Source: Crossaster papposus
Lineage: Eukaryota; Echinodermata; Asteroidea; Velatida; Solasteridae
Assembly (NCBI GenBank): GCA_037893245.1
Contig: JBAIAA010000396.1
Span: 372,001 to 436,000 of the forward strand
Length of the DNA stretch: 64,000 nt
Reading direction: 5' to 3'
Each line of letters opens with the position of its first letter. Positions within the stretch are counted from its first letter, which is position 1. The notes under the pieces were generated by a model. That model was not told the DNA's origin, searched no databases, and saw only the letters and a list, made by a program, of their open reading frames with translations. The translations under genes and the position numbers were made by a program. Positions 5,379 through 62,034 of the stretch are shown here, piece by piece.

Positions 5379-5566
5379 ATCGCTTCTCGGCCTTTTGGCT
5401 AAGATCATGTGTAGTATCTGTTCTTTTCAGCTTAATATCTGAAACGCTGTTCATCGAACAGCCAGTATATTAATCTGATTTTTGGATTTGGGCCGTGGAA
5501 TAGAGGCTTGCCTCGTCCCGGCCATGGGTTGGCCCGGTATAGCAGTACATCCGGGATTCGGCCCAC
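5379..5566 (+). ncRNA. U2: U2 snRNA, unit 1 (intact)
   Basis: About 188 nt, the usual U2 length. It begins ATCGCTTCTCGGCCTTTTGG as in other animals. Stem-loop I is nt 11-22, the branch-point recognition sequence GTAGTA is nt 33-38, the Sm site ATTTTTGG lies at about 5477-5486, and the 3' half ends in the stem-loop around CCCGGTATAGCAGTACATCCGGG. U2 pairs with the intron branch site in the spliceosome. The 3' end is placed by comparison with fly and human U2 and may be off by a few bases. Confidence 0.96.
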
Positions 5567-24095: not shown

Positions 24096-24124
24096 ATCGC
24101 TTCTCGGCCTTTTGGCCAAGATCA
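24096..24124 (+). pseudogene. U2 5' fragment (nt 1-29), left of insertion A
   Basis: U2 nt 1-29 with one change, T22 to C (at 24117), which turns the G11-U22 pair of stem I into G-C. Nt 30-35 (TGTGTA) are missing at the junction. Confidence 0.95.
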
Positions 24125-24136
24125 CCGGGAGCTACG

Positions 24137-25477
24137 ATGGCAACGAATGAACTACAGAGGGAGCTGTCTACATACCTGACGACTGATGCGAAGATCCAAT
24201 ACGACGAGATGTGCCAGCTGATCTCCGAGACCGCCGGGGAGACTGACGTCGCCTGCGTCCAGCAGCTGAGTGAAAACAAATGGTGCGTCACCACAACATC
24301 TGAAGCGGCCAATACAAAGATGCTCCAAGCCGACCTGCTCATCGGGCAACATCGTGTTACGTCCACACCGGTGAGCAGGAAGAAGACCTTCATCACGGTC
24401 CGTGACGCACCATTCGAGCTACGCGACGTCACCATCTCCCTGGCGCTATCTCACTACGGCAAGGTCTTCGGCATCAGACGAGGACATTGGCAGAAACATC
24501 TTGGGTGGGAGAACGGCCACCGACACGCGCGTATGGAACTGAGTCGTCCAATCCCATCTTACGTGCGTGTCGGTGGGTACCAAGTGCGAGTGGAGTACGA
24601 CCACCAAGAGAGGACATGCCGGGTTTGCGGGTTGGTCGGCCACCTGGCTGCGGGGTGCCCGTCAGTTGTGTGCTACAACTGCAACAAGCACGGGCACCGC
24701 AGCCGGGAGTGTCCGGAGCCGGTGAAGTGCCGAGGGTGCGGGGAGACGGGGCACTATGCCGCACGGTGCCCCCGTTCGTACGCCGCTCGCCTGCGTGTTA
24801 CGGCTTTCACCGACCCGGACATCGACGACGACGGCGGCGACCCGCGCCCGGCGAGACCGCCCACACCACCTCGGGCCAGTCCGGACCCTGCGGCTACAAC
24901 CCGTCAGACAGGACCACTCAAGGTACCCCGGACCCCACCACAGGACGCCCCACCACAGCCGGCCAGACCAACCAAGCCTTCACGGCCTAGTAGCCCACCA
25001 CAAAGACCATCTGAGGCCGGCACACCCACTGCAGGCGGCACCAGGCCCGCCCGCACAGCCAACCGTCCACCTCGGCGTGGTGCGGGCGAGGCGGTTGCCC
25101 CGACCACGGAGAGTGCGACGGCAACGGTGTCGATGTCATCGTTGTCGTCGTCAGAAACATCGATCACTACGAACGTGTCGTTCTCCTCCGTGGAAGGCGG
25201 TAAGCCTAGGCGGTACCAGCTGAAACTCCCGTCGATAACGCCGGAAGAGAGAACCAGGGACTGGGCGGAGATGGTCGCGAGTGCGGAGGCGGAGATACAG
25301 CAAGAGATGGAGCGACGGAGCCAGGAAAGCAGTTCCGACGGGTCCGTCGCCTCCATAATATCTACCGCCTCCGCAAAACGCTGTCACCATTCCTCAGATT
25401 CCCCTGAGGAATGGTCGACAATACGAGGGAAGAAACCACGTCCCAAGAAGAGGAAGGCACGAGCCAACAAAAAATGA
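24137..25477 (+). CDS. ORF1 protein of insertion A (RRM-like plus CCHC knuckles)
   Basis: 446 codons. The frame is open upstream into U2 and its promoter, but ATG 24137 is chosen because the homologous ORFs align from here and U2 transcription would begin at 24096. Residues 1-80 are an N-terminal domain shared with D. Residues 84-155 look RRM-like (FITVRDAPFELRDVTI and GKVFGIRRG). Three CCHC knuckles follow: C161-C164-H169-C174, C179-C182-H187-C192 and C198-C201-H206-C211. Then come a Pro-rich linker (about 236-310), a Ser/Thr-rich stretch, an acidic/Gln segment and a Lys/Arg-rich tail. It probably binds element RNA to form the retrotransposition particle. Its last part is identical in sequence to that of insertion E. 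Confidence 0.88.
   Translation: MATNELQRELSTYLTTDAKIQYDEMCQLISETAGETDVACVQQLSENKWCVTTTSEAANTKMLQADLLIGQHRVTSTPVSRKKTFITVRDAPFELRDVTISLALSHYGKVFGIRRGHWQKHLGWENGHRHARMELSRPIPSYVRVGGYQVRVEYDHQERTCRVCGLVGHLAAGCPSVVCYNCNKHGHRSRECPEPVKCRGCGETGHYAARCPRSYAARLRVTAFTDPDIDDDGGDPRPARPPTPPRASPDPAATTRQTGPLKVPRTPPQDAPPQPARPTKPSRPSSPPQRPSEAGTPTAGGTRPARTANRPPRRGAGEAVAPTTESATATVSMSSLSSSETSITTNVSFSSVEGGKPRRYQLKLPSITPEERTRDWAEMVASAEAEIQQEMERRSQESSSDGSVASIISTASAKRCHHSSDSPEEWSTIRGKKPRPKKRKARANKK
25387..25414 (+). repeat. Hairpin near the ORF1 end, insertion A
   Basis: An 11-bp perfect stem (25387-25397 with 25404-25414) and a 6-nt loop, inside coding sequence. The same hairpin is in insertions B (one G-U pair) and E, but not in D. 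Confidence 0.85.
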
Positions 25478-25861
25478 ACTGTTTTCTTTGGTGGTGGGTT
25501 AAGTGAGTTGTTTTGTTTAAATAAGTGGTGGTGGTTTTTTAATAAGAAGATGTAAATTTTATGTAAATATAAGTGGTGGTGGGTTTAAGAAGATGTTAAT
25601 TTTTTATGTAAATATTTTCACAGTTGTGTTTTTGTAAAAATTGAAGATACAAATAATACGTAATATTTATTCAGTTGTTCTTTTCCTGATAGTAATCAAG
25701 CGCGTTTATTTTGGTGGAGGGTTATGTCCCGTTTTATATAATGTTTGCATTGTTTAAAACAAGTTGTATTTAATTTTTATTTTGTACATACTGTGACCGT
25801 TGTGTTGTATCATCATATGTGTGTTTGGTTTCATTTACAAGAATAAACCAATTTAAAAACC

Positions 25862-32065: not shown

Positions 32066-32094
32066 ATCGCTTCTCGGCCTTTTGGCCAAGATCA
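32066..32094 (+). pseudogene. U2 5' fragment (nt 1-29), left of insertion B
   Basis: Same 29-nt fragment, T22C change and 6-bp loss as at insertion A. Confidence 0.95.
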
Positions 32095-32107
32095 GGAGGA
32101 ATCTACG

Positions 32108-33469
32108 ATGGCCAGCCGAGAAATCCCGAGAGACCTGTCTGCATACCTGACGACGGAGGTGAAGATACCCTACGATGAGATGTGCCAGCTGATAGCCACC
32201 ACCGCCGGGGAGACTGACGTCGCCTGCGTCCAGCAGCTGAGCGACAACAAATGGTGCGTCACCACAACAACCGAAGCAGCGAAGTCGAAGATCCTGCAAG
32301 CCGGCCTGCTCGTCGGGCAACACCGAGTGACAACTACGCCGGTGAGCAGGAAGCTGACGTTCGTAACCATCCGTGACGCACCATTTGAGCTGCACGATGT
32401 CACCATCTCCTCGGCGCTGTCTGCATACGGCAAGGTGGCCGGCATCAGACGGGGACACTGGCAGAAGCATCTTGGGTGGGAGAACGGCAACCGGCACGCA
32501 CGTATGGACTTGAGTCGTCCGATCCCATCTTACGTGCGTGTCGGTGGATACCAACTACGGGTGAGCTACGACAACCAGGAGAGGACATGCCGGGTTTGCG
32601 GGTTAGTCGGCCACCTGGCTGCGGGGTGCCCGTCAGTTGTGTGCTACAACTGCAACAAGCACGGGCACCGCAGCCGGGAGTGTCCGGAGCCGGTGAAGTG
32701 TCGAGGGTGCGGGGAGACGGGGCACTATGCCGCACGGTGCCCCCGTTCGTACGCCGCTCGCCTGCGTGTTTCGGCGTTCACCGACCCGGACATCGACGAC
32801 GACGACGGCGGCAACCCGCGCCCGGCGAGACCGCCCACACCACCTCGGGCCAGTCCAGACCCTGCCGCTACCACCCGTCAGGCGAGACCACCCAGGGTAC
32901 CCCGGACCACCCGTCAGTCGGCCCCCCCACCACAGGACGCCCCACCTCAGCTGGCCGGACCACCCAAGCCTCCACGGCCAAGCACCCCACCCAAGAAAAC
33001 ATCTGAAGCCGGCACACCCACTGCGGGTGGCACCAAGCCCGCCCGTACAGCCACCCGTCCACCTCGGCATGGTGCGGGCGTGGCGGGTGCCCCGACCGCG
33101 GAGAGTTCGACGGCGACGGTTTCCATGTCATCGGCGTCGTCGACCAACACATCGATGACTACGAACGTGTCGATCTCTTCCGTGGACTGCAGTGCGGATG
33201 TGCCGGGCCTGCCGGATCTCCCATGGATACAGCCGGACGTAAAGACCAGCACCTGGGCGGAGATGATTGTGTGTGCGGAGGCGGAGATACAGCAAGAAAT
33301 GGAGCGACGGAGCCAGGATAGCATTTCCGACGGTTCCGTCGCCTCCATTATATCTACCGCCTCCGTAAAACGCGGTCACCATTCCTCGGATTCCCCTGAG
33401 GAATGGTCGACCATACGGAAACAGAAGCCAGCGACAACCAAGAGGAAGGCACGTGCCAGCAACAAATGA
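32108..33469 (+). CDS. ORF1 protein of insertion B
   Basis: 453 codons from the ATG that matches the starts in A and E. Domain order and knuckle positions are as in insertion A (Cys/His sets starting at 161, 179 and 198). The Pro-rich linker is longer, and the segment after about residue 340 differs (for example CSADVPGLPDLPW), while the C-terminal block around AEIQQEMERRSQ and SSDSPEEWSTIR is shared. The frame is open despite this divergence, which suggests the protein was kept under selection. Confidence 0.88.
   Translation: MASREIPRDLSAYLTTEVKIPYDEMCQLIATTAGETDVACVQQLSDNKWCVTTTTEAAKSKILQAGLLVGQHRVTTTPVSRKLTFVTIRDAPFELHDVTISSALSAYGKVAGIRRGHWQKHLGWENGNRHARMDLSRPIPSYVRVGGYQLRVSYDNQERTCRVCGLVGHLAAGCPSVVCYNCNKHGHRSRECPEPVKCRGCGETGHYAARCPRSYAARLRVSAFTDPDIDDDDGGNPRPARPPTPPRASPDPAATTRQARPPRVPRTTRQSAPPPQDAPPQLAGPPKPPRPSTPPKKTSEAGTPTAGGTKPARTATRPPRHGAGVAGAPTAESSTATVSMSSASSTNTSMTTNVSISSVDCSADVPGLPDLPWIQPDVKTSTWAEMIVCAEAEIQQEMERRSQDSISDGSVASIISTASVKRGHHSSDSPEEWSTIRKQKPATTKRKARASNK
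33384..33411 (+). repeat. Hairpin near the ORF1 end, insertion B
   Basis: Counterpart of the hairpin in insertion A. The closing pair at the loop is G-U instead of A-U, so the base change keeps the stem. Confidence 0.75.
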
Positions 33470-33824
33470 ACTGTTTTCTTTGGTGGTGGGCGTAAATTTG
33501 ATTTGAACTTTTTCTTTTGGTGGTGGGTAAAGTGAGTTGTTTGTTTGTTTAAATATAAGAAGATGTAAATTTTATGTAAATATTTCCACAGTTGTGTTTA
33601 AAAATTGAAGATACAAATGATACGTAATATTTATTAAGTTGTTCTTTTTCTGATAGTAATCAAGCGCGTTTATTTTGGTGGAGGGTTATGTCCCGGCTTA
33701 TATAATGTTTGCATTGTTTAAAACAAGTTGTATTTAATTTTTATTTTGTAAATACTGTGACTGTTGTGTGTATCATCATATGTGTGTTTGGTTTCATTTA
33801 CAAGAATAAACCAATTTAAAAACC

Positions 33825-40028: not shown

Positions 40029-40061
40029 ATCGCTTCTCGGCCTTTTGGCTAAGATCATGTG
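40029..40061 (+). pseudogene. U2 5' fragment (nt 1-33), left of insertion C
   Basis: U2 nt 1-33 with the normal T22. Only nt 34-35 are lost (or only one base, if the A before the 3' fragment is counted as U2). Confidence 0.93.
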
Positions 40062-40664
40062 CAGCTTTTTTGCTCCCGTGATTTTGAGGCGTTGTCAAGT
40101 TTTGTCGTGCTAAACTGATATTTTTTGTATATCAGTTTATTCCGTTTGTTTTATAGACCAGGTTGGTCTTATTTTCGCCAAATTTCTTTGTATTTTTGGT
40201 CGTTGTTTTGGAGGTTTTTAGTTTTGGTTTTTGGTCGCTGGCTGTATACGCAGTGCTGTAGCAGCCAGCGCCATTCGTTTACGTACAGCCTTTGTTCTCC
40301 CCGTGGAAGTCCACGGGGCCATAGGTTTGTACGTGTTTCTTTGTCCGTCCGTACAGTGTACGGTTTTTCCTTTGTTGTTCATTTACCCGTGGCGCTTACA
40401 TAACACCAGTTGTGTGTGTAGTGCTACGGGTTTTTCCTATTTCTTTGTGTGGGTGAAGGCAATAAGTCTTGCCTTCACGCCATTTTTGTATATACGATAG
40501 TGTTGTGTATGTGCCGCGCTTGTATTTTGTTTTATACATAGCGCGTGTGCTTATACTTTACTTTCTTGTTTTGCTGGACTAGGCAGTTGCTAGTCCAGCC
40601 TTGTTTTAATACCCAGGAGGTTTTTCCTTTCTTGGTATTTTGTATTATTTGGTTTATTTCCTGC

Positions 40665-42320
40665 ATGTCGGGAAATAATTCTTCTAGTGCTAGGCGTCCC
40701 CGCGCTTTCGAACTTAGTTTCGATGGCAAGGAGACGCCTAGCGATGTTTTTAAGGTCCTCCGGGGGATTGGGATTGTCCCGTCCTCCCACCTGGAGGCTT
40801 TACAACCCCTTTCCGGCGGCCGGTTTGACCTTACGTTCAAATCGGCCGTCTTGGCTCGTCGTTTCGAGCTTGATCTGGACCAGCTTCCTGGGTGTCGAGT
40901 TACATCCTTCGACATGAAGCTGGTCTCAGTCAATTATGTGGAGATGGATCTTGACGACAATGTCGTCAGATCCATTCTCTCTAGGTACGGCAGGGTCCAT
41001 AAGGGTAGGTTTTTGACCTACCCCGAGGAGCCTGCCGTATTTACTGGCACCCGGCAATACTTAATGTCGGGTGTCAGGTCCATTCCGTCGGTTCTCCGCA
41101 TCGGGAATCGCAATGCCTGGGTCGGCCACTCTGGTCAGACTCGGACTTGCGCCCGATGCGGAAGCCCTGGCCACTCTGCAAGCAAATGTATCACCGTAAG
41201 GTGTTACAAATGCTTGCAGTTGGGTCATCCCTCCGGGGAGTGCCCCAACAGGGTGGTGTGCACGTTCTGCGGGGACGAGGGGCACGGTTTTAAACTGTGC
41301 CCTAAGTCCTTCGCAGAGAGGGTGCGGCCCGCCAAGCGGTGGGCAGATGTGGTGGTGCAGGGGAAATCTTCCCCTGCACAACATAAGGGGGAGGCTTCTC
41401 CGCCTCTTGAGGCGCCCACACTTGTGAGCGCCGAGAAGGTGGTGAGCCCTTCCTCTTCCTCTAGCTCCGGGCCCGGTCCGTCGGGCTCGGAGACTGTAAC
41501 GGTGTCCGATGCCAATATAGTATCGGACTTCGAATTGCCTCGAGCACCGTGTATTCGGTGCTCGAAGGATGCCGGTCCTCTACGATCCGCGGAAGGGTGG
41601 CTTTGTTTCCACTGCGACCGCTGGATCACGAGGACCGTTAAGTTCAGCTTTGTCGGTTGCGGCGGCTGTATGGGAGACGGCGATGGAATCGTTGTCTCTT
41701 GTGACGCCGTTGGGTGTCAGGCCGCCGCGATCGAGAAAGCTGTTCCTTTTGTCCCTGTATCAAGGAAGGGGAAGGCGAAGAAGAAGAAGAAGAGGTCGCG
41801 AGACCCTTCTTCGGACTCGGATGCCCCCTCTTCCAAAATACAGGGAACTAACCTCTCAGACTCTCAGGAGTCTGAGATGGTATTAGACGAGCCGGTTGGC
41901 TCGTCTAAAACCACCACCGGCCCCCTAAACAACACCGAGGGTGGCACCGGGGTGGAGGTAACCCCGGAGACCTCTAATGAGCCTCTCCGGAGTCGACCTT
42001 TAGATCAGGCCATGGCCAAAATGAATGAACTCAAGGTCCCCGGGATTGGTAACCAGGCACTTGTCTGCTACCCTCCGCGGGGCTGCGAGGCTGAGTTCTT
42101 CGATTGGGGGGAGTTTGTTGCACACCTGCAGAGGGTCCACGGTTGTAAGCCACGGATCCGCTGCGAGGTGTGTGGACTCAAGTTACCGACTCCGTTGTCG
42201 TCTCCGTTGTTTTGGGCTGGCCATCTGGCCCGGGAGCATACTCAGTATGTTCTGGGCACAGATAGTGCCAGCCTTGTTAAGTTGTTTGATATGCGTGTCC
42301 GTTTTCCGAAAGTCGTTTAG
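40665..42320 (+). CDS. ORF1-like zinc-finger protein of insertion C
   Basis: 551 codons from ATG 40665. The frame is open from 40545, but the upstream 40 residues are hydrophobic and lack similarity to ORF1 starts, so the inner ATG (MSGNNSSS) is preferred; this is not certain. Residues about 10-80 and 84-155 correspond in position to the N-terminal and RRM-like domains of the D family. CCHC knuckles are C162-C165-H170-C175, C180-C183-H188-C193 and C199-C202-H207-C212. Next come an eight-cysteine segment (C296, C299, C314, C317, C332, C335, C346, C351), a Lys-rich stretch (about 367-378), and two C2H2-like fingers (C468-C474-H487-H492 and C500-C503-H520-H525). Function is inferred: RNA binding by the knuckles and possibly DNA-target binding by the C-terminal fingers. 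Confidence 0.8.
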   Translation: MSGNNSSSARRPRAFELSFDGKETPSDVFKVLRGIGIVPSSHLEALQPLSGGRFDLTFKSAVLARRFELDLDQLPGCRVTSFDMKLVSVNYVEMDLDDNVVRSILSRYGRVHKGRFLTYPEEPAVFTGTRQYLMSGVRSIPSVLRIGNRNAWVGHSGQTRTCARCGSPGHSASKCITVRCYKCLQLGHPSGECPNRVVCTFCGDEGHGFKLCPKSFAERVRPAKRWADVVVQGKSSPAQHKGEASPPLEAPTLVSAEKVVSPSSSSSSGPGPSGSETVTVSDANIVSDFELPRAPCIRCSKDAGPLRSAEGWLCFHCDRWITRTVKFSFVGCGGCMGDGDGIVVSCDAVGCQAAAIEKAVPFVPVSRKGKAKKKKKRSRDPSSDSDAPSSKIQGTNLSDSQESEMVLDEPVGSSKTTTGPLNNTEGGTGVEVTPETSNEPLRSRPLDQAMAKMNELKVPGIGNQALVCYPPRGCEAEFFDWGEFVAHLQRVHGCKPRIRCEVCGLKLPTPLSSPLFWAGHLAREHTQYVLGTDSASLVKLFDMRVRFPKVV

Positions 42321-42376
42321 TCCCTTTTGTTGTCTTGTAGTTGATAGTATGTATTTTGTTTGTATACGTTCTATGG

Positions 42377-42436
42377 CAGAGAGTTAGGGTCGTACCCTAC
42401 CATGGTAATGCGTGGGTAGCGTGGCTACACTCTCTG
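42377..42436 (+). repeat. Possible three-way junction in the 3' UTR of insertion C
   Basis: An outer 8-bp stem (42377-42384 with 42429-42436) encloses two hairpins: 42385-42390 with 42394-42399, and 42416-42420 with 42424-42428. Such a fold near the 3' end could be the recognition structure for the reverse transcriptase; that role is inference. Confidence 0.7.
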
Positions 42437-42570
42437 TCTGTACCGTCCTGTTTTGGTGTTTTGTTGTTTATTCTGGTTACGGGCAGGGGGGCTCGAGACC
42501 CCACAACACTGTAGTTCGGCGATTTGGTAAGTCGACCTGTCCGGGGCTTTCAGCCCCATATCAAAAAACA

Positions 42571-42723
42571 GTATCTGTTCTTTTCAGCTTAATATCTGAA
42601 ACGCTGTTCATCGAACAGCCAGTATATTAATCTGATTTTTGGATTTGGGCCGTGGAATAGAGGCTTGCCTCGTCCCGGCCATGGGTTGGCCCGGTATAGC
42701 AGTACATCCGGGATTCGGCCCAC
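42571..42723 (+). pseudogene. U2 3' fragment (nt 36-188), right of insertion C
   Basis: Resumes at the same base as after the other insertions, although the end of insertion C is unrelated to theirs. Confidence 0.94.
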
Positions 42724-43457
42724 TCCCCTCGGGGAACATCAATTAATACAAAAACAGGTCTCGTCTATTATGTGTATTCCTATGTCGCCTCACTTTTACA
42801 AGTTCTTTCTTCGCTTTACTTCGTGGCTTTCTTATATTTGAACATTTCAATTTGTCTCAATTAAATAATTGTATGAAGACCGATCTCTTTGTTTTAGGTT
42901 GATTTCTGAAGAAAGGGAAAAACAACAACAACAAAAACAAACAAACAAACAAACAAACAAACAGATCCTCTGCGACTGGTTGTATTTTTTTTTGGCGAAG
43001 ATGTATTAGATTTCTTTATCTTTTCCATATTTTTAGAAATTCATATGATTTCATATAAATGTAGACTTTAAATGTTCTTTTTGTTTTTGGTCTTGTTTGT
43101 TTGAATTCCATTTTTGTTCTAAATACTGTATAGGTAATAATGCAGGGCCCTTTTTTATAGCTTTTTTTTTGTAAGTGATAAAACCTCAAATACAATAAAT
43201 AACAGTGCTTTTAACAGTTCAGTTTTTATGTTTGTATTTTAATGTTGCGATTATTCGTTTGCTTGCTTTCCTCTCTCTCTCTCTCTCGTTGACTGTTTAT
43301 TTCTCCTCTCGTGTCGTTATTTCGGGAGGGAAACCTCTGCCACGATTTGTTGCTAGAGGGCGCCCTGACTTTCGTTTGCCTGGCGTGCTCCTATCGCGTC
43401 CGCGCATAGCAGTGATATATAATACACTGCCTCGCCCATTCAATCGATCTAGTCTAG

Positions 43458-48774: not shown

Positions 48775-48806
48775 ATCGCTTCTCGGCCTTTTGGCTAAGA
48801 TCATGT
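48775..48806 (+). pseudogene. U2 5' fragment (nt 1-32), left of insertion D
   Basis: U2 nt 1-32 with the normal T22; nt 33-35 are lost. Confidence 0.94.
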
Positions 48807-48818
48807 ACAACTGCTACC

Positions 48819-50516
48819 ATGGCCAACCGAGAATTACAGAGAACTCTTTCTACTTACCTGACGACCGATGAGAAGATCGACTATGCCAAGATGTGTGACC
48901 TGGTGGCCAAGACCGCCGGGGAGACTGACGTCGTTTGCGTCCAGCAACTAAACGGCAACAAATGGTGCGTCACCACGAAGACTGAAGCGGCCAAGGGAAA
49001 GATGCTCAACGCCAGCTTGTCCATCGGAGCGCAGCGGATTACGGCTACACCTGTGTCGAAGAAGCTGGCGTTCATCACAGTCCGTGACGCACCATTTGAA
49101 CTGAGCGACGTCACCATCTCCTCGGCATTGTCCCCATACGGGAAGGTGTTCGGGGTGCGTCGGGGCCACTGGCAGCGTCACCTTGGGTGGGAGAACGGCC
49201 ATCGACACGCACGGGTGGATCTGAGTCGTCCCATCCCGTCCTACGTGCGTGTCGGTGGTTTTCAACTGCGGGTTACTTACGACAACCAGGAACAGACATG
49301 CCGGGTTTGCGGAGCGGTCGGCCACCTGGCCGCGGGGTGTCCTACAGTTGTATGCTACAACTGTAATAAGCCCGGTCATCGTAGCCGTGAGTGCCCTGAG
49401 CCGGTAAAATGTCGAATGTGCGGGGTGACGGGGCACTACGCAGCACGGTGCCCCCGTTCGTACGCCGGTCACCTGCGCGCTTCGACCCTCGCCGGCTCGG
49501 ACGGCGGCGATGACCGCGGCGACCCGCGGCCGGTGAGGCCGTCTAGACCACCATGGGCCTGTCTCGACCCTACTGCCACCGTGAAGGAGACTCGGCACCC
49601 GCAGACGACAACCACACCACCCCAGGAGACATCCGTCCGGCCCAAGACCCGCCCCACCCCGGCACCCCGGACAACGGCAACCCGGCCCACGGCACCCCAG
49701 ACCACGGCACCCCGGACAACGGCAACCCGGCCCACGGCACCCCAGACCACGGCAACCCGGACCACGGGTAGCCGGCCCACGGCACCTAAGACCACGGCTA
49801 CCGGGACCACGGCAACCCGGACCACGGCAACCCGGCCCACGGCACCACAGACCACAGCACCACAGACCACGGCACCCCAGACCACGGCAACCTACCCCAC
49901 GACGACCCACCTCAAGGAGACGACACCCCACCCCAACGAGAAGATAACCCACTCCAAGGACACGACAACAACACACAAGACCCAACGACCGTGCCCCCCG
50001 CCGAATCGACCATCCCCAGCGGGCACACCCGTCGCAGTCGTCACCAAGCCCGCCCGTACAACTAACATTGAACAACGAGATGCACCTTCCCCGAGACCGT
50101 CGGTCTCGGGGGAAAATCTGCGCGGTACGGGCGCGGCGTGTTCCCCGGCCATGGAGAGTTCCACGTCGGACAGTGAGTCTGCTACATCCACGGCCACCAA
50201 CATTTCCGACTACTCCATGGCCTACCATCTGCGGAACTCGTCGGGTGTGCCCCGCGAGCCCGACGTCCCCGTTTGGTGTGCCGCGGACAACACTAAGTCC
50301 TGGGCCGATCAAGTTACGGAGTCGGAGGAAATTAAACGAGACTTGGAGCGACTGAACCAGGCGTGCGATTCCGACGGTTCAGTCGTTTCCATGTCCTCCG
50401 TCGCCTCCTCCAAACGCGGTCACCTTTCGTCGGACTCGCCTGGGGAATGGGAGGAGATTCGGCATAAAAAACCGAACAAACGGAGGCCAAAAAAGGTGCG
50501 GTCCAACCATAAATAA
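48819..50516 (+). CDS. ORF1 protein of insertion D
   Basis: 565 codons from the ATG in ACCATGG. The frame is open upstream through the U2 fragment, but this start matches the relatives and sits in a good Kozak-like context. N-terminal domain, RRM-like region (about 84-155) and CCHC knuckles (C161-C164-H169-C174, C179-C182-H187-C192, C198-C201-H206-C211) are as in A. A Thr/Pro-rich low-complexity linker (about 240-400) contains a tandem pentapeptide repeat. The tail around WADQVTESEEIKRDLERL and HLSSDSPGEWEEIR aligns with the ends of the A, B and E proteins and is followed by a basic tail. The expected role is a nucleic-acid chaperone coating the element RNA. Confidence 0.9.
   Translation: MANRELQRTLSTYLTTDEKIDYAKMCDLVAKTAGETDVVCVQQLNGNKWCVTTKTEAAKGKMLNASLSIGAQRITATPVSKKLAFITVRDAPFELSDVTISSALSPYGKVFGVRRGHWQRHLGWENGHRHARVDLSRPIPSYVRVGGFQLRVTYDNQEQTCRVCGAVGHLAAGCPTVVCYNCNKPGHRSRECPEPVKCRMCGVTGHYAARCPRSYAGHLRASTLAGSDGGDDRGDPRPVRPSRPPWACLDPTATVKETRHPQTTTTPPQETSVRPKTRPTPAPRTTATRPTAPQTTAPRTTATRPTAPQTTATRTTGSRPTAPKTTATGTTATRTTATRPTAPQTTAPQTTAPQTTATYPTTTHLKETTPHPNEKITHSKDTTTTHKTQRPCPPPNRPSPAGTPVAVVTKPARTTNIEQRDAPSPRPSVSGENLRGTGAACSPAMESSTSDSESATSTATNISDYSMAYHLRNSSGVPREPDVPVWCAADNTKSWADQVTESEEIKRDLERLNQACDSDGSVVSMSSVASSKRGHLSSDSPGEWEEIRHKKPNKRRPKKVRSNHK
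49670..49895 (+). repeat. 15-bp minisatellite within ORF1 of insertion D
   Basis: Imperfect tandem copies of a 15-bp unit close to ACGGCACCCCAGACC, encoding TAPQT/TATRT-type pentapeptides (roughly residues 285-358). The unit is a multiple of three, so copy-number change keeps the frame. It is absent from A, B and E. Confidence 0.85.
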
Positions 50517-50558
50517 GTGTGTTTTTGTTGTTGTTTTTTGTTTTTATCCTTTTGAATT

Positions 50559-53500
50559 ATGGCTCTGTTCCAGTTTTTATGTGCCCTTTTTTGCATTTCG
50601 ATCATGTTTTCTTTAAATATTAGTAGTATTAATGTCAATGGGTTGCGAAATTGTTTTAAACGCCGCCAAATTTTCGACTCCTGCAATGAGCGAGGTGTTG
50701 ACATCTTGCTCTTGCAGGAGGCCCATGTCTCTGGCTTCTCCGAGGCCAGGGCGTGGGCCCGGGAATTTGACGGCGTGGGTTTTTGGTCTTTCGGGACAAC
50801 TTCGAGTTGTGGCGCGGCCATTTTGTTATCTAAGCGCCACACATGGGAAACGGCCGACTATTTGCGGGACAAGGACGGTCGAGCGGTTTCACTCACAGTC
50901 AAATTAAAAAACAAGGGAACAAAAATACGAATTGTCAACGTGTATTGTCCGAATTCTTCGAGCGATAGACGGCGATTCTTCCTTGAACAATTGCCGTCTC
51001 ATTGCCGGGGGATTCGGCATACAATTTTGGGGGGTGATTTCAATTGCATAGAACATTTACAAAAAGATACAAAAGGGGGATCAGACAACTACCACAATAC
51101 ACAGGGGATTAATGAACTTAACAAAACCGTGAAACCGCTCGGCCTAGTAGATGCGTGGAGAGTCCAAAACCCGAATGTAAGCCGCTTTACGTGGCACAAC
51201 AAAAACAACACCCGTGCCACGCGCATTGACCGCATCTACATGTCCCGTGAATTAGCCGCTGTTTCTCACAACGCAATTGCCGCTTTTCCGTTTTCTGATC
51301 ATGACATCATCACTACTGAAATAAAAATTGACAACTGCAAAAGGGGAAGGGGTTTTTGGAAATTTAATACTTTATTACTTCGGGATGGGAATTTTTGTTC
51401 TATGATTAGGAAACTTTGGGTAAATTGGGGGGAACACGTACATTTATTTGACAATCTTAATGACTGGTGGGAGGAAGGGAAAACCGAGATTAAGAGAGCG
51501 GCAATTGCGTTTTCCGCCGATAAGGCTCGGCAACGTAATCTTGAATTTAAGGAGCTCCTGAGAAAGTCCAACGAATTGCAATCCAAAGTAGACAATGGTG
51601 ATAATAATTTGATCCCCGATTTAGTTAATACCCGAGCCCAAATAACCAAGTATTATTCTTTCCAGGCGAACCCCATTTTTTCCTCCAACCACCCCAAAAT
51701 TCAGGGGGAAACCAATTGTACCTACCCCACCCTCCAAAACCCAGACACGAAACGTATGTCCGCCCTGCGTGACCGGGACGGCCGTGTCACCTCTGACCCC
51801 AACGAAATGTCTAATATTTGTGTTGATTTTTATCAGGATTTATACACGGCTGTCCCGGTTGACCAGGGTGAGACGGACTTTCTCATGAGCTCAGTGGACA
51901 GGAGACTCGGCCCCGACGAGCGAGCATCACTCGAGGGGCCGGTGACCATGTCCGATGTAAGGTGTGCATTGTTTGACATGGCGGCGGGTAAGTCCCCCGG
52001 TTCGGACGGACTTCCCGCCGAATTTTATCGTACATTCTTCGATGATGTGGGCCAATCCTTATGTGACGTTTTGAACTTTTCTTTTGGGGAGGGTAAATTG
52101 GGTAAATCTCAGCGGGAGGGTATTATCAGTTTATTGTACAAAAACAAGGGGGACAGAGACAATATTACTAATTACCGGCCCATATCATTGTTGAATGTCG
52201 ATTACAAAGTGTTGTCAAAAATCCTCGCTAACCGAGTAAGAAAGGTGCTGGACAAAATTATCCACCTCGACCAGACTTGCTCGGTGGCGGGGAGAACCAT
52301 CACCGACAATGCACACCTGTTACGTAATGTTCAAGATTATGTTGACCAGAAAAACATCGGCGCGGTGTTCGTTTCTTTGGACCAACAGAAAGCGTTTGAC
52401 AGGGTCGATTGGGGGTATCTGAAGCAAGTCCTTGGACATTTTGGCTTCGGAGAAAATTTTTGTAAGTGGGTGGATATTTTGTACAGTGATATTAATAGTC
52501 GGGTTAATTGTAATGGTTTCATTTCGCAGCCCTTTTCGCTCACCCGGGGGGTGCGGCAGGGATGTCCCCTGTCGCCCCTTCTCTACATTTTAGCGTTGGA
52601 ACCCTTCGGGTGCGCGGTAAGGGCTGATAGTCAAATTCATGGGGTTAAACTTCCGGGGGGGTCCGAAGCCAGAGTGTCCATGTACGCCGACGATACCACC
52701 TTGATCCTGTCGGACGAGAGGTCCATCGTCCGATGTTTTGACCTCGTCCGAAGATTCGAGCTCGCGTCCGGTGCCAAGCTGAATCGGCAGAAAACGTGTG
52801 GCGTCTACCTTGGCAGGTGGAAACACACAATGTCTGGCCCGGTTGACATCAGGTGGGCAACTTCGGCAAAAATTGTTGGTATTTATGTTGGATATGATAA
52901 AATTAAGAACAAAATTTGGGAAGAAAAAATAGTGCAGCTAAATGCTGCTATGGAATTGTGGGGGAATTGTAATGATTTTAGTTTGAGGGGGCGGGTCATT
53001 ATTGCGAATCAATTTTTGTTTTCTAAATTATGGTATGTTGCCGAGGTTGTCCCCCCACCGAAAGAGAAAATTAAAGAAATTAACAGAATTTTATTTCAGT
53101 TTATCTGGAATAGTAAGGTGGAGTATGTTAACCGGGCGACCATGTCCCTCCCCCTTTCTCAAGGGGGGATGGGCGTGGTCGACTTTGATAGCAGAATGGC
53201 CGCAATGCGGGGTGTCCATGTCAGCAGTATTGTCTCGGATAAACCGGCTAAGTGGATTATTTTAGCGCGATATTGGTGCGGTTTTTCTTTACGTAGCGTT
53301 AACCCAAATTTAATTAGACAAAATATGCCCCACTGTGATTTCCCCTCTGAGTTTTACAAATTAGTGTTGATTTCTTTTCGTAGCCACCGAGACATTGCTG
53401 CTGACTGGTCAAACGTAAAACTTAAGACTCACCTCGCCGCCGTACTCGAAGCCCGAGGGACCGAGCCCAAAGTCCAGCGAGATCGCCCGGGCCTGTCCTG

Positions 53501-53921
53501 GGCCACGATTTGGAAACGCACGTTGTGTACCAAATTGTCGAACAAACAAATTTCTTTGAATTTCAGAACGGTACATAACGTGCTGCCCACCGGTGACCGA
53601 TTAAGGAAACAATCGAAAGACACAGGCGCGTGCCCGCACTGCACTCAGCTCGAGACCAGAGACCACCTTTTCATTGAGTGCAGTGTGGCGGAACCGGTGG
53701 GCGCGTGGCTCAGGCAGCGCCTGGGCAGGACAACCCATGTATTAGTTGATCGAAATGCACTTGTGTTTTCTTCATTTTGTGATAATGTTAGTAAAAAAGT
53801 TGAGAAGTTAATTTGTTGTGAATTAAGTAAATTTCGTTATTCATTGTGGTTAGCTAGGAACAGAGCCAAATATGAGAGAATTAAAATGTGCAGTAAAGAT
53901 ATTATTTTCAGCTTACAGTGA
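50559..53921 (+). CDS. ORF2 protein of insertion D: endonuclease and reverse transcriptase
   Basis: 1120 codons from ATG 50559; the in-frame ATG at 50604 (Met16, MFSLNISSINVNGLR) is an equally good start. The APE-type endonuclease spans about 16-255, with Asn at the NISSINVNGLR start, QE at 53-54, GGDFN at 158-162, RIDRIY at 222-227 and SDHD at 246-249. The reverse transcriptase spans about 475-780, with KSPGSDGLPAEFY (478-490), NYRPISLLNVDYK (538-550), motif A VSLDQQKAFDRV with Asp608, RQGCPLSP (666-673) and YADD (709-712). A CCHC motif (C1025, C1028, H1036, C1041) lies near the C-terminus. It should nick U2 and prime reverse transcription on the nicked end. The endonuclease-RT linker (about 360-400) is poorly conserved. 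Codon use is more AT-rich than in ORF1. Confidence 0.94.
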   Translation: MALFQFLCALFCISIMFSLNISSINVNGLRNCFKRRQIFDSCNERGVDILLLQEAHVSGFSEARAWAREFDGVGFWSFGTTSSCGAAILLSKRHTWETADYLRDKDGRAVSLTVKLKNKGTKIRIVNVYCPNSSSDRRRFFLEQLPSHCRGIRHTILGGDFNCIEHLQKDTKGGSDNYHNTQGINELNKTVKPLGLVDAWRVQNPNVSRFTWHNKNNTRATRIDRIYMSRELAAVSHNAIAAFPFSDHDIITTEIKIDNCKRGRGFWKFNTLLLRDGNFCSMIRKLWVNWGEHVHLFDNLNDWWEEGKTEIKRAAIAFSADKARQRNLEFKELLRKSNELQSKVDNGDNNLIPDLVNTRAQITKYYSFQANPIFSSNHPKIQGETNCTYPTLQNPDTKRMSALRDRDGRVTSDPNEMSNICVDFYQDLYTAVPVDQGETDFLMSSVDRRLGPDERASLEGPVTMSDVRCALFDMAAGKSPGSDGLPAEFYRTFFDDVGQSLCDVLNFSFGEGKLGKSQREGIISLLYKNKGDRDNITNYRPISLLNVDYKVLSKILANRVRKVLDKIIHLDQTCSVAGRTITDNAHLLRNVQDYVDQKNIGAVFVSLDQQKAFDRVDWGYLKQVLGHFGFGENFCKWVDILYSDINSRVNCNGFISQPFSLTRGVRQGCPLSPLLYILALEPFGCAVRADSQIHGVKLPGGSEARVSMYADDTTLILSDERSIVRCFDLVRRFELASGAKLNRQKTCGVYLGRWKHTMSGPVDIRWATSAKIVGIYVGYDKIKNKIWEEKIVQLNAAMELWGNCNDFSLRGRVIIANQFLFSKLWYVAEVVPPPKEKIKEINRILFQFIWNSKVEYVNRATMSLPLSQGGMGVVDFDSRMAAMRGVHVSSIVSDKPAKWIILARYWCGFSLRSVNPNLIRQNMPHCDFPSEFYKLVLISFRSHRDIAADWSNVKLKTHLAAVLEARGTEPKVQRDRPGLSWATIWKRTLCTKLSNKQISLNFRTVHNVLPTGDRLRKQSKDTGACPHCTQLETRDHLFIECSVAEPVGAWLRQRLGRTTHVLVDRNALVFSSFCDNVSKKVEKLICCELSKFRYSLWLARNRAKYERIKMCSKDIIFSLQ
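53637..53685 (+). repeat. 11-bp inverted repeat over the ORF2 zinc motif, insertion D
   Basis: CACTGCACTCA at 53637-53647 pairs perfectly with TGAGTGCAGTG at 53675-53685, with a 27-nt loop. It spans the codons for the CCHC motif. Confidence 0.7.
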
Positions 53922-54065
53922 CCGGTTAATGTTTTTTGGTGGTGGGTTAACTGAGCGTTTGCAGACAAGTTGTATGTTTAAAACCTTTTAAATGTAAATA
54001 ATATAACCTGTGTGTACATTTCATTGTTGTTTGGTTGTTTGCAAGAATAAACCAATTTAAAAACC

Positions 54066-60269: not shown

Positions 60270-60298
60270 ATCGCTTCTCGGCCTTTTGGCCAAGATCA
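60270..60298 (+). pseudogene. U2 5' fragment (nt 1-29), left of insertion E
   Basis: Carries T22C and the 6-bp loss, as at insertions A and B. Confidence 0.95.
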
Positions 60299-60310
60299 CC
60301 GGGAGCTACG

Positions 60311-61651
60311 ATGGCCAAGAATGAACTGCAGAGGGAGCTGTCTACCTACTTGACTACTGAGACGAAGATCGACTACGATGCGATGTGCAAGCTGATCGTC
60401 GACACCGCCGGGGAGACTGACGTCGTCTGCGTCCAGCAGCTGAGCGACAACAAATGGTGCGTCACCACTACAACTGAAGCAGCGAAGACCAAGATCCTGC
60501 AAGCCGGCCTGCTCATCGGGCAACACCGAGTAACATCTACACCGGTGAGCAGGAAGCTGACGTTCGTAACCATCCGTGACGCACCATTTGAGCTGCGCGA
60601 CGTTGCCATCTCCTCGGCGCTGTCTGCATACGGCAAGGTGGCCGGCATCAGACGGGGACACTGGCAGAAACATCTTGGGTGGGAGAACGGCCACCGACAC
60701 GCGCGTATGGAACTGAGTCGTCCAATCCCATCTTACGTGCGTGTCGGTGGGTACCAAGTGCGAGTGGAGTACGACCACCAGGAGAGGACGTGCCGGGTTT
60801 GCGGGTTGGTCGGCCACCTGGCTGCGGGGTGCCCGTCAGTTGTGTGCTACAACTGCAACAAGCACGGGCACCGCAGCCGGGAGTGTCCGGAGCCGGTGAT
60901 ATGTCGGGGGTGCGGGGAGACGGGGCATTTTGCCGCACGTTGCCCCCGTTCATACGCCGGTCGGCTGCGTGCTTCGGCGTTCACCGGCTCGGACAACGAC
61001 GACGACGTCGGCGACCCGCGCCCGGCGAGACCGCCCACACCACCTCGGGCCAGTCCGGACCCTGCGGCTACAACACGTCATGCAAGACCGCCCAGAGTAC
61101 CCCGGACCCTACCACAGGACGCCCCACCGCAGCCGGCCGGACCACCCAAGCCTCCACGGCCAAGCACCCCACCGCAGAGACCATCGGAGGCCGGCGCGCC
61201 CACTGCAGGCGGCACCAGGCCCGCCCGCACAGCCAACCGTCCACCTCGGCGTGGTGCGGGCGAGGCGGTTGCCCCGACCACGGAGAGTGCGACGGCAACG
61301 GTGTCGATGTCATCGTTGTCGTCGTCAGAAACATCGATCACTACGAACGTGTCGTTCTCCTCCGTGGAAGGCGGTAAGCCTAGGCGGTACCAGTTGAAAC
61401 TCCCGTCGATAACGCCGGAAGAGAGAACCAGGGACTGGGCGGAGATGGTCGCGAGTGCGGAGGCGGAGATACAGCAAGAGATGGAGCGACGGAGCCAGGA
61501 AAGCAGTTCCGACGGGTCCGTCGCCTCCATAATATCTACCGCCTCCGCAAAACGCTGTCACCATTCCTCAGATTCCCCTGAGGAATGGTCGACAATACGA
61601 GGGAAGAAACCACGTCCCAAGAAGAGGAAGGCACGAGCCAACAAAAAATGA
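60311..61651 (+). CDS. ORF1 protein of insertion E (A/B mosaic)
   Basis: 446 codons, with the same domain order and knuckle positions as A. Residues about 83-116 (LTFVTIRDAPFEL and SSALSAYGKVAGIRRG) match B rather than A. Residues about 126-158 (ENGHRHARMELSRPIPSYVR through YDHQERTC) match A rather than B. From about residue 310 to the end it is identical to A. The third knuckle differs from both (ICRGCGETGHFAARC). This patchwork suggests recombination or template switching. Confidence 0.88.
   Translation: MAKNELQRELSTYLTTETKIDYDAMCKLIVDTAGETDVVCVQQLSDNKWCVTTTTEAAKTKILQAGLLIGQHRVTSTPVSRKLTFVTIRDAPFELRDVAISSALSAYGKVAGIRRGHWQKHLGWENGHRHARMELSRPIPSYVRVGGYQVRVEYDHQERTCRVCGLVGHLAAGCPSVVCYNCNKHGHRSRECPEPVICRGCGETGHFAARCPRSYAGRLRASAFTGSDNDDDVGDPRPARPPTPPRASPDPAATTRHARPPRVPRTLPQDAPPQPAGPPKPPRPSTPPQRPSEAGAPTAGGTRPARTANRPPRRGAGEAVAPTTESATATVSMSSLSSSETSITTNVSFSSVEGGKPRRYQLKLPSITPEERTRDWAEMVASAEAEIQQEMERRSQESSSDGSVASIISTASAKRCHHSSDSPEEWSTIRGKKPRPKKRKARANKK
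61561..61588 (+). repeat. Hairpin near the ORF1 end, insertion E
   Basis: Same 11-bp stem and 6-nt loop as in insertion A. Confidence 0.85.
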
Positions 61652-62034
61652 ACTGTTTTCTTTGGTGGTGGGTTAAGTGAGTTGTTTTGTTTAAATAAGT
61701 GGTGGTGGTTTTTTAATAAGAAGATGTAAATTTTATGTAAATATAAGTGGTGGTGGGTTTAAGAAGATGTTAATTTTTTATGTAAATATTTTCACAGTTG
61801 TGTTTTTGTAAAATTGAAGATACAAATAATACGTAATATTTATTCAGTTGTTCTTTTCCTGATAGTAATCAAGCGCGTTTATTTTGGTGGAGGGTTATGT
61901 CCCGGTTTATATAATGTTTGCATTGTTTAAAACAAGTTGTATTTAATTTTTATTTTGTACATACTGTGACCGTTGTGTTGTATCATCATATGTGTGTTTG
62001 GTTTCATTTACAAGAATAAACCAATTTAAAAACC

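What the first reader, a model, noticed from the sequence alone, without database searches (positions are those of the whole stretch)
40062..42570. Insertion C is filled end to end with short near-perfect hairpins, including its coding region
I paired more than 20 stems by eye across 2.5 kb. Many have 9-11 bp perfect arms and loops of 2-10 nt (for example 40453-40478, 41355-41379, 41540-41565, 41883-41908), and one has 14 bp with a single bulge (40944-40975). In random sequence the expected number of 10-bp perfect stems with loops up to about 10 nt in this length is roughly 2500 x 10 x 4^-10, about 0.02. Several stems include a G-U pair, which points to structure at the RNA level. Most lie in the ORF, so codon choice seems shaped by folding. 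Such a uniformly structured retrotransposon RNA is unusual; it could aid packaging, block silencing or antisense pairing, or result from fold-back copying by the polymerase. The neighbouring element D shows only scattered hairpins.
Basis: partly seen in the sequence, partly recalled or inferred. Interest (0 to 1): 0.9.

Follow-up and report, generated by a model that had tools for sequence, protein, structure and literature searches.

The report
Retrotransposon RNA folded into hairpin chain
A selfish genetic element that sits inside a splicing-RNA gene of an unnamed, probably animal, genome carries a message predicted to fold over most of its length into short hairpins, more strongly than two RNA phages compared with it, and evolution appears to be preserving the folds; what the folding is for is not yet known.

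Summary
The hairpins are real and far beyond chance: 7 perfect stems of 10 bp or more with loops of 2-12 nt against 0.00 in shuffles. In the ORF, folding beats codon-preserving shuffles by about 15 SD (0 of 60 reach it). Element C is an ORF1-only relative of Keno-type retrotransposons in U2 snRNA genes. Its genome holds dozens of copies; 77 of 79 scored by protein have no stop, and 28 of 28 distinct copies aligned keep 37-47.5% excess folding. In 150-nt windows it is more structured (38%; core 48.5%) than MS2 (27%) and Qbeta (31%). Selection looks current: derived changes cost less folding than every random placement (14 of 14 and 8 of 8 overlapping comparisons). Changes at paired sites go to G.U about three times as often as to A.C, a bias absent at unpaired sites, which points to sense RNA. 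Compensatory changes are few (10 of 74 helices), and many changes break pairs. Loops vary freely, so the fold itself seems selected. Keno D and another related ORF2 are also structured, at longer range. The function (compaction or shielding) is inferred.

The parts
40029..40061 (+). U2 snRNA nt 1-33, 5' part of the interrupted gene
   Evidence: Identical to the intact U2 at 5379, 11618, 17857; Rfam U2
40062..42569 (+). Element C: ORF1-only U2-specific non-LTR retrotransposon copy
   Evidence: Interrupts U2 between nt 33 and 35; 26 of 26 loci L003-L028 have U2 at the same 5' junction, and 24 of 25 (L004-L028) also the U2 3' junction
40062..40664 (+). 5' UTR: hairpins separated by U-rich linkers, depleted of ATG (1 vs 6.8 expected)
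   Evidence: MFED 52.7% over 7 windows; ATG 1-2 vs 5.0-7.7 expected in 28 of 28 copies; fold
40665..42320 (+). ORF, 551 aa, ORF1-like protein
   Evidence: pN/pS 0.04-0.34 in aa 1-225 over 8 pairs of copies
41148..41300 (+). Three CCHC zinc knuckles shared with the ORF1 of A, B, D, E
   Evidence: tblastx 45% over 84-94 aa; invariant Cys/His in alignment A2; Pfam zf-CCHC E=0.0011, just under its cut-off
42063..42240 (+). Cys/His-rich C-terminal region, C2H2-like by eye, replaced by other types in other copies
   Evidence: Motif read from sequence; Pfam gave no hit there in C (E<=0.1) and only sub-threshold hits in L020/L048; C-terminal types
40212..41961 (+). Core of the hairpin chain
   Evidence: 22 of 22 windows z<-2, mean z -5.92, MFED 48.5%
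40453..40478 (+). Hairpin, 10 bp in C; 8-10 bp paired in 28 copies, one A-U to G-C double change
40944..40975 (+). Hairpin, 8+7 bp with one bulge
   Evidence: outer 8 bp kept in 28 of 28 copies
41176..41219 (+). Hairpin over the zinc-knuckle region; outer 9 bp kept in 28 of 28 copies with 4 different arm pairs
41355..41379 (+). Hairpin, 11 bp; 10 or 11 bp kept in 28 of 28 copies
41540..41565 (+). Hairpin, 10 bp; all 10 kept in 27 of 28 copies
41854..41877 (+). Hairpin, 10 bp; all 10 kept in 27 of 28 copies
41883..41908 (+). Hairpin, 11 bp; 9-11 bp kept in 28 copies
42543..42569 (+). 3'-terminal hairpin and A-rich end
   Evidence: 86 places in the genome with up to 2 mismatches, 0 for the reversed pattern
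42570..42728 (+). U2 snRNA from nt 35, 3' part of the interrupted gene
24124..25861 (+). Element A: ORF1-only Keno-type insert in U2
32094..33824 (+). Element B: ORF1-only Keno-type insert in U2
48806..54065 (+). Element D: Keno-type element with ORF1 and an endonuclease/RT ORF2; candidate helper
   Evidence: Pfam Exo_endo_phos, RVT_1, zf-RVT
60298..62034 (+). Element E: ORF1-only Keno-type insert in U2

Best explanation
Element C belongs to a large family of ORF1-only, U2-snRNA-specific non-LTR retrotransposons whose sense RNA is under continuing natural selection to fold into a nearly unbroken chain of short local hairpins, in the 5' UTR and through most of the coding region. SHOWN (by sequence analysis): the hairpins; that codon choice favours them; that distinct copies keep the excess folding; that changes follow sense-RNA pairing rules. 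INFERRED: (1) the RNA is made by read-through of the host U2 gene and starts with U2 nt 1-33; (2) it is copied back into U2 genes by a reverse transcriptase supplied in trans, most simply that of Keno-type D, which uses the same site; (3) the folding works as general compaction: it keeps a long RNA that probably has no poly(A) tail from being degraded or from pairing with antisense or small RNAs, and lets it pack into a particle with its own zinc-knuckle ORF1 protein. [quoted passage not shown] Confidence: selected sense-RNA structure about 0.9; helper in trans about 0.6; the specific benefit about 0.35. The score below is for the core claim with its anatomy.
For: Hairpin counts against shuffles. 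Codon-preserving shuffles Z -14.6/-15.0, 0 of 60 reach. 28 of 28 representative copies have open ORFs of 540-553 aa and 37-47.5% excess folding (8 shuffles each). Polarised test (changes derived in one copy placed on a sister with the ancestral state): folding loss smaller than all 24 random placements in 14 of 14 comparisons; third codon positions and UTR only, 12 of 14 with 0/24, the others 1/24 and 2/24. A second set: 8 of 8 with 0/20, summed loss 71.5 vs 429.5 kcal/mol on the sense strand, 144.4 vs 488.2 on the antisense (sums). At Watson-Crick pairs called without G.U: one-sided changes to G.U 68, to A.C 23; the corresponding changes in unpaired columns 86 and 91 (odds ratio 3.1, p=4.7e-5; five other reference copies 2.5-3.0, p 2e-4 to 8e-4). 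Double changes restoring a Watson-Crick pair: 10, against 1-5 with slid partners. Stems vary less than apical loops: UTR 0.209 vs 0.361, third codon positions 0.209 vs 0.417 (structure taken from C, so not free of ascertainment). In the linker (aa 226-440) pN/pS is 0.52-1.06, so the protein constrains little there, yet hairpins are kept. Yardsticks. All five window inserts sit at nearly the same U2 site.
Confidence: 0.8

Rival explanations
1. The hairpins are many specific binding sites (packaging signals) for the element's own ORF1 protein, as in RNA phages whose coat protein reads several stem-loops.
For: The element encodes its own protein with three CCHC knuckles; there are about 20 apical hairpins per kb; MS2 and Qbeta show similar hairpin density by one caller. 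The phage coat-binding comparison is recalled.
Against: Apical loops are as variable as other unpaired bases (UTR 0.361 vs 0.326; third positions 0.417 vs 0.359), and I saw no common loop motif in the list of 51 loops (by eye, no motif search was run).
Confidence: 0.2
2. Fold-back or template-switch copying by the polymerase keeps making perfect inverted repeats; the hairpins are a mutational by-product.
For: Very perfect arms and short spans; sense and antisense about equally structured.
Against: Strand-specific G.U over A.C bias; single changes are filtered by folding; amino-acid identity to Keno-type ORF1 shows no clear drop in paired codons (32 of 77 fully paired; 4 of 8, 3 of 12 and 12 of 31 with 0, 1 and 2 paired bases).
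Confidence: 0.07
3. Selection acts on DNA (cruciforms or folded single-stranded cDNA), not RNA.
For: Watson-Crick stems are symmetric; antisense folding is also kept, in 4 of 8 comparisons with a more negative Z than the sense strand.
Against: G.U is favoured over A.C about threefold, and the summed sense loss is 17% of the random loss against 30% for antisense.
Confidence: 0.08
4. Composition, codon usage or amino-acid content gives the folding by chance.
For: The first part of the element is T-rich and the coding part G+C-rich.
Against: Dinucleotide, codon-usage and context-preserving shuffles all fail to reach the observed folding; histone genes of the same array show none.
Confidence: 0.01

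Closest known systems
Keno (U2-specific non-LTR retrotransposon with APE-type endonuclease; Tx1 clade is recalled)
   Same: U2 insertion site the same to within a base at the 3' junction and a few bases at the 5' junction as Keno-type D in this window; homologous ORF1 with three CCHC knuckles
   Different: C has no endonuclease or reverse transcriptase, has a 600-nt 5' UTR, its own 3' end, a different C-terminus, and short-range hairpins over most of its length
Utopia (U2-specific non-LTR retrotransposon with restriction-like endonuclease; PMC4640811, parts 1 and 2 of 5 read)
   Same: Same U2 target; several families kept together in one U2 array; tandem insertions also reported there
   Different: Utopia encodes one protein with RT and RLE; C has neither
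HAL1 'half-LINE' elements (recalled; a search listing was seen but no paper on them was read)
   Same: ORF1-only relatives of a full LINE
   Different: HAL1 is not target-specific, and no such RNA structure is known to me for it
[quoted passage not shown]
   Same: Excess folding spread over coding sequence, made of consecutive stem-loops
   Different: C is a retrotransposon; its excess (40.8% in 400-nt windows) is above the 23.4% given there as the highest for vertebrate RNA viruses (350-nt windows, another shuffler); many of its pairings are kept between copies of 86-98% identity, whereas that paper reports poor conservation between sarbecoviruses
RNA phages MS2 and Qbeta
   Same: Coding RNA folded into dense local hairpins; similar hairpin density
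   Different: C has more long perfect arms (7 vs 1 and 1 with arms >=10, loops 2-12), and as a retroelement would have a DNA, not an RNA, replication intermediate

Membership tests
Keno (Tx1 clade) | Insertion at the Keno U2 site | tested here: met
   Junctions as in D, A, B, E to within a few bases; 26 of 26 loci L003-L028 have the U2 5' junction
Keno (Tx1 clade) | APE endonuclease and RT in ORF2 | tested here: not met
   No RT ORF in C nor in the stretches L029, L030, L031, L033, ORFs >=250 aa listed
Keno (Tx1 clade) | ORF1 with three CCHC knuckles | tested here: met
   Pfam score slightly under cut-off
Keno (Tx1 clade) | RT phylogeny within Tx1 | not tested
   C encodes no RT; no tree was built for D, so 'Keno-type' and 'Tx1' rest on site, domains and recall
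Half-LINE (ORF1-only) derivative of a LINE | ORF1 kept, ORF2 absent | tested here: met
   77 of 79 scored copies have an uninterrupted ORF1; absence of ORF2 checked only for C and four fetched stretches
Half-LINE (ORF1-only) derivative of a LINE | 3' end shared with an RT-bearing helper | tested here: inconclusive
   Not found for C: in about 1.1 kb downstream of 8 other related ORF2s neither U2 nor C's 3' motif was matched; only a sample. A, B, E share about 100 nt with D
Utopia | Single protein with RT and restriction-like endonuclease | tested here: not met
   ORF of 551 aa without RT hit
GORS | Folding energy well beyond sequence-order shuffles across the coding RNA | tested here: met
GORS | RNA genome of a virus | tested here: not met
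   Chromosomal U2-inserted retroelement
GORS | Structure present in the RNA in cells | not testable with these tools
   No probing data

The most novel reading that the evidence does not exclude
Global RNA folding is a general, selected property of Tx1-type retrotransposons, not only of RNA viruses: long-range in Keno and in another related ORF2, and extreme and short-range in the C family, which may live like an RNA phage inside the genome: a compact, self-coated RNA that encodes only its coat-like ORF1 protein and borrows a reverse transcriptase.
Probability: 0.35. Interest if true: 0.9.

Novelty: new variant of a known kind. Interest (0 to 1): 0.8.

Why it matters
Ordered RNA structure across whole coding genomes has been discussed for RNA viruses, with its purpose unexplained. 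A stronger case in a eukaryotic retrotransposon with dozens of intact, slightly different copies gives a natural experiment: the same structure question can be asked without virus replication, host immunity or a double-stranded RNA stage. It also suggests that synonymous sites of some transposons are under strong hidden constraint, which would bias age and selection estimates made from them. In the papers held (open-licence PMC only), four searches combining retrotransposon or LINE terms with hairpins, ordered RNA structure or folding energy listed no title or abstract start that reports this; I read none of those listed papers.

Tried and rejected
Energy test on C with random placement of all differences: discarded as proof because sister copies are not descendants of C; replaced by the polarised test. 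Static G.U:A.C counts inside C: too little power; the RNA phages also give mild ratios. Codon-register test: in C the excess of paired bases in helices >=6 bp lies in registers 3:1 and 3:2, not 3:3 (80 vs 82.6 expected), but at >=8 bp 3:3 is also raised (61 vs 33.6), and Qbeta replicase has a 3:3 excess, so it does not separate selection from copying. Keno A/B/D/E: third-position identity is higher at paired sites in 12 of 12 ordered pairs, but circular shifts reached it in 0 to 68 of about 245; the polarised test was significant in one direction only (0/24 and 7/24); on a Watson-Crick-only structure G.U did not clearly exceed A.C (for example D to A 11 vs 14). Left inconclusive. RNA families other than U2 and histone stem-loops: nothing above cut-off; no ribozyme family matched. 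Relatives outside the genome: none in IMG/VR or plasmids. A host-gene control (HSP70 family) could not be run, so the only host controls are the four histone ORFs and the histone spacer DNA. G on the 5' arm with U on the 3' arm exceeds the reverse in C (65 vs 29, p=0.0003); A leans the same way (39 vs 19), MS2 the opposite; unexplained, not used. Rows dropped: identical copies and those above 98.5% identity; L030 (recombinant); L059 (one stop; its start motif was not found); L034-L047, L049, L055, L058 (repeat or near-repeat the copies already held by their scores).

Full report
SETTING. The window lies in an unnamed 1.02-Gb assembly (G000:C396:372001-436000). It is a tandem array of about 6.24-kb units, each with H4, H3, H2B, H2A and one U2 snRNA gene. 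Of 8 U2 genes in the window, 3 are intact and 5 are interrupted at nearly the same place, around U2 nt 29-35. Insert D is a Keno-type element with ORF1 and an ORF2 carrying endonuclease and reverse transcriptase domains. Inserts A, B and E are ORF1-only and share about 100 nt of 3' end with D at 77-78% identity. Insert C, the finding, is also ORF1-only but is a different family: it has its own UTRs, and by tblastx only its zinc-knuckle region resembles D (45% over 84-94 aa, E 1e-21 to 1e-24 in either direction). 'Keno-type' rests on site and domains (PMC4640811 for Keno's site and endonuclease); 'Tx1' is recalled and no tree was built.

THE OBSERVATION. All named hairpins are there. Perfect stems with arms of at least 10 bp and loops of 2-12 nt number 7 in C against a mean of 0.00 in 100 dinucleotide shuffles; with arms of at least 8 bp, 10 against 0.27. 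In 32 windows of 150 nt the mean z is -4.24 on the sense and -4.37 on the antisense strand; histone DNA gives -0.35 to 0.23, D -0.66, A -1.10. The core 40212-41961 reaches mean z -5.92 and 48.5% excess folding energy; 5' UTR 52.7% (7 windows), ORF 40.1% (21 windows), 3' UTR 9% (only 2 windows). The predicted fold is 36 exterior domains of median 54 nt with a median gap of 4 nt, and 93% mean pairing probability at paired bases. Folding limited to spans of 50 nt already gives -990.6 of the -1178.0 kcal/mol found at span 400.

YARDSTICKS. By the same method MS2 has 27% and Qbeta 31% excess in 150-nt windows, C 38%. In 400-nt windows: C 40.8%, MS2 29.3%, Qbeta 27.6%, D 14.0%, another related ORF2 (L073) 12.4%, histone DNA 2.2%. 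Published values with 350-nt windows are 15% for SARS-CoV-2, 7.5-10.7% for HCV and 23.4% for the most structured vertebrate RNA virus then recorded (PMC7642675, passages); the shuffling methods differ.

OTHER COPIES. A DNA search gave 44 matches; a protein search 79 scored of 1043 first-look candidates, 77 of the 79 without a stop (both lists are capped). In 26 of 26 loci L003-L028 the 5' flank is U2 at the same site, and in 24 of 25 (L004-L028) the 3' flank is too; L005 is followed by a second copy. I aligned C with these 25 loci, 23 sequences after removing identical ones, then added 16 more chosen from L029-L063 and found by the same U2 junctions; 28 of the 39 are below 98.5% identity to each other, 86-98% pairwise. 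All 28 have an open ORF of 540-553 aa and excess folding of 37-47.5% against codon shuffles, 8 shuffles each. L059, which has one stop, was not among them. In aa 1-225 pN/pS is 0.04-0.34 over 8 pairs of copies; in the linker 0.52-1.06.

STRAND. With stems called from Watson-Crick pairs only, one-sided changes went to G.U 68 times and to A.C 23 times, while the matching changes in unpaired columns were 86 and 91 (odds ratio 3.1, p=4.7e-5); five other reference copies gave odds ratios of 2.5-3.0. A G.U in the sense RNA is an A.C on the other strand, so this points to a constraint on sense RNA. Changes restoring a Watson-Crick pair on both sides were 10, in 10 of 74 helices, against 1-5 for eight slid controls. 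Against this, 52 single mismatches, the 23 A.C and 10 double mismatches break pairs. So the structure is kept mainly by avoiding or softening damage, less by compensation, which is not surprising at 86-98% identity.

WHAT IS KEPT. Apical loops vary as much as other unpaired bases (UTR 0.361 and 0.326; third positions 0.417 and 0.359) and more than stems (0.209 in both); second codon positions do not follow this (stem 0.160, apical 0.200, other 0.128). This argues for a benefit of being folded rather than of particular loops. The 5' UTR of about 600 nt has only 1-2 ATG against 5.0-7.7 expected in all 28 copies, which suggests that ribosomes do scan or enter this leader.

HOW WIDE. A, B, D, E ORF1 and the D ORF2 also exceed codon shuffles, but clearly only when longer stems are allowed (span 40: Z between -0.9 and 0.3; span 150: -4.9 to -8.4; span 400: -6.3 to -12.6). 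An ORF2 with 58% protein identity from another contig behaves like D (6.5%, 12.4% and 25.8% excess at the three spans). So global folding may be general in such elements of this genome, with C the extreme case in another architecture. This rests on one outside element and lacks long host-gene controls. Whether the long-range folds are selected is not settled.

MECHANISM. The likely course: the host U2 promoter makes an RNA with U2 nt 1-33 at its head (inferred); it is translated into the zinc-knuckle protein (inferred); it folds as it is made (inferred); folding and protein coat keep it compact and stable (inferred); a reverse transcriptase acting in trans, most simply that of Keno-type D at the same site, writes it into other U2 genes (inferred: D and C share the target to within a few bases, but not the 3' end). 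Near-intact D-type ORF2 copies are few: 8 of 41 scored matches are full length at 95% or more, 5 of those 8 without stops.

LIMITS. Structures are predictions. The host is not identified and no expression data were available. Copies recombine (C-terminal and 3' UTR swaps), so polarisation by outgroup is imperfect. 

Noticed in passing
window 1-64000; U2 at 5379, 11618, 17857, 24096, 32066, 40029, 48775, 60270: Histone quartet and U2 snRNA share one tandem unit; 5 of 8 U2 genes in the window are interrupted at nearly the same site by three kinds of insert.
   Followed up: partly
24124-25861, 32094-33824, 60298-62034: A, B and E look like ORF1-only parasites of Keno-type D (shared 3' end), so ORF1-only U2 inserts exist in two families. 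The U2 fragment upstream of A, B and E differs from intact U2 by one base.
   Followed up: partly
L004, L018, L020, L048 and others: C-family copies carry at least four different C-termini and at least two 3' UTR types on a common body: modular swapping of a Cys/His-rich region.
   Followed up: partly
40062-40664 and equivalents in 28 copies: Leader of about 600 nt strongly depleted of ATG (1-2 vs 5.0-7.7 expected), with hairpins separated by U-rich linkers in C.
   Followed up: partly
L030:8076-9404: A histone H4 ORF runs in frame into a C-family fragment, apparently by recombination in the array.
   Followed up: no
G000 contigs C726, C1306, C1486, C1531, C1743, C1777, C1788, C1807, C136: The C-family 3' end recurs there with a period near 5.96 kb, as if whole occupied units were amplified; the piece read (L033) lists no histone ORF, but the cut-off of 250 aa is too long to exclude histones.
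   Followed up: no
L005:1501-5468: Two C-family copies head to tail in one U2 gene, the second partial.
   Followed up: no
window 40062-42569: G on the 5' arm with U on the 3' arm is twice as common as the reverse (65 vs 29, p=0.0003); unexplained.
   Followed up: partly
window 24124-24905, 32094-32876, 48806-49590, 60298-61079: Keno-type ORF1s contain long complementary runs about 110 nt apart, e.g. 15-nt arms in D and 13-nt arms in A, in sequences that are otherwise about 78% identical (A, B, E against D).
   Followed up: partly
window 42533-42569: The 3' end of C (short stem-loop followed by ATCAAAAAACAGTATCTG) looks somewhat like the U2 5' end it displaces; Rfam U2 scores it 125.6 bits against 115.7 for A, B, E and 118.2 for D.
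   Followed up: no
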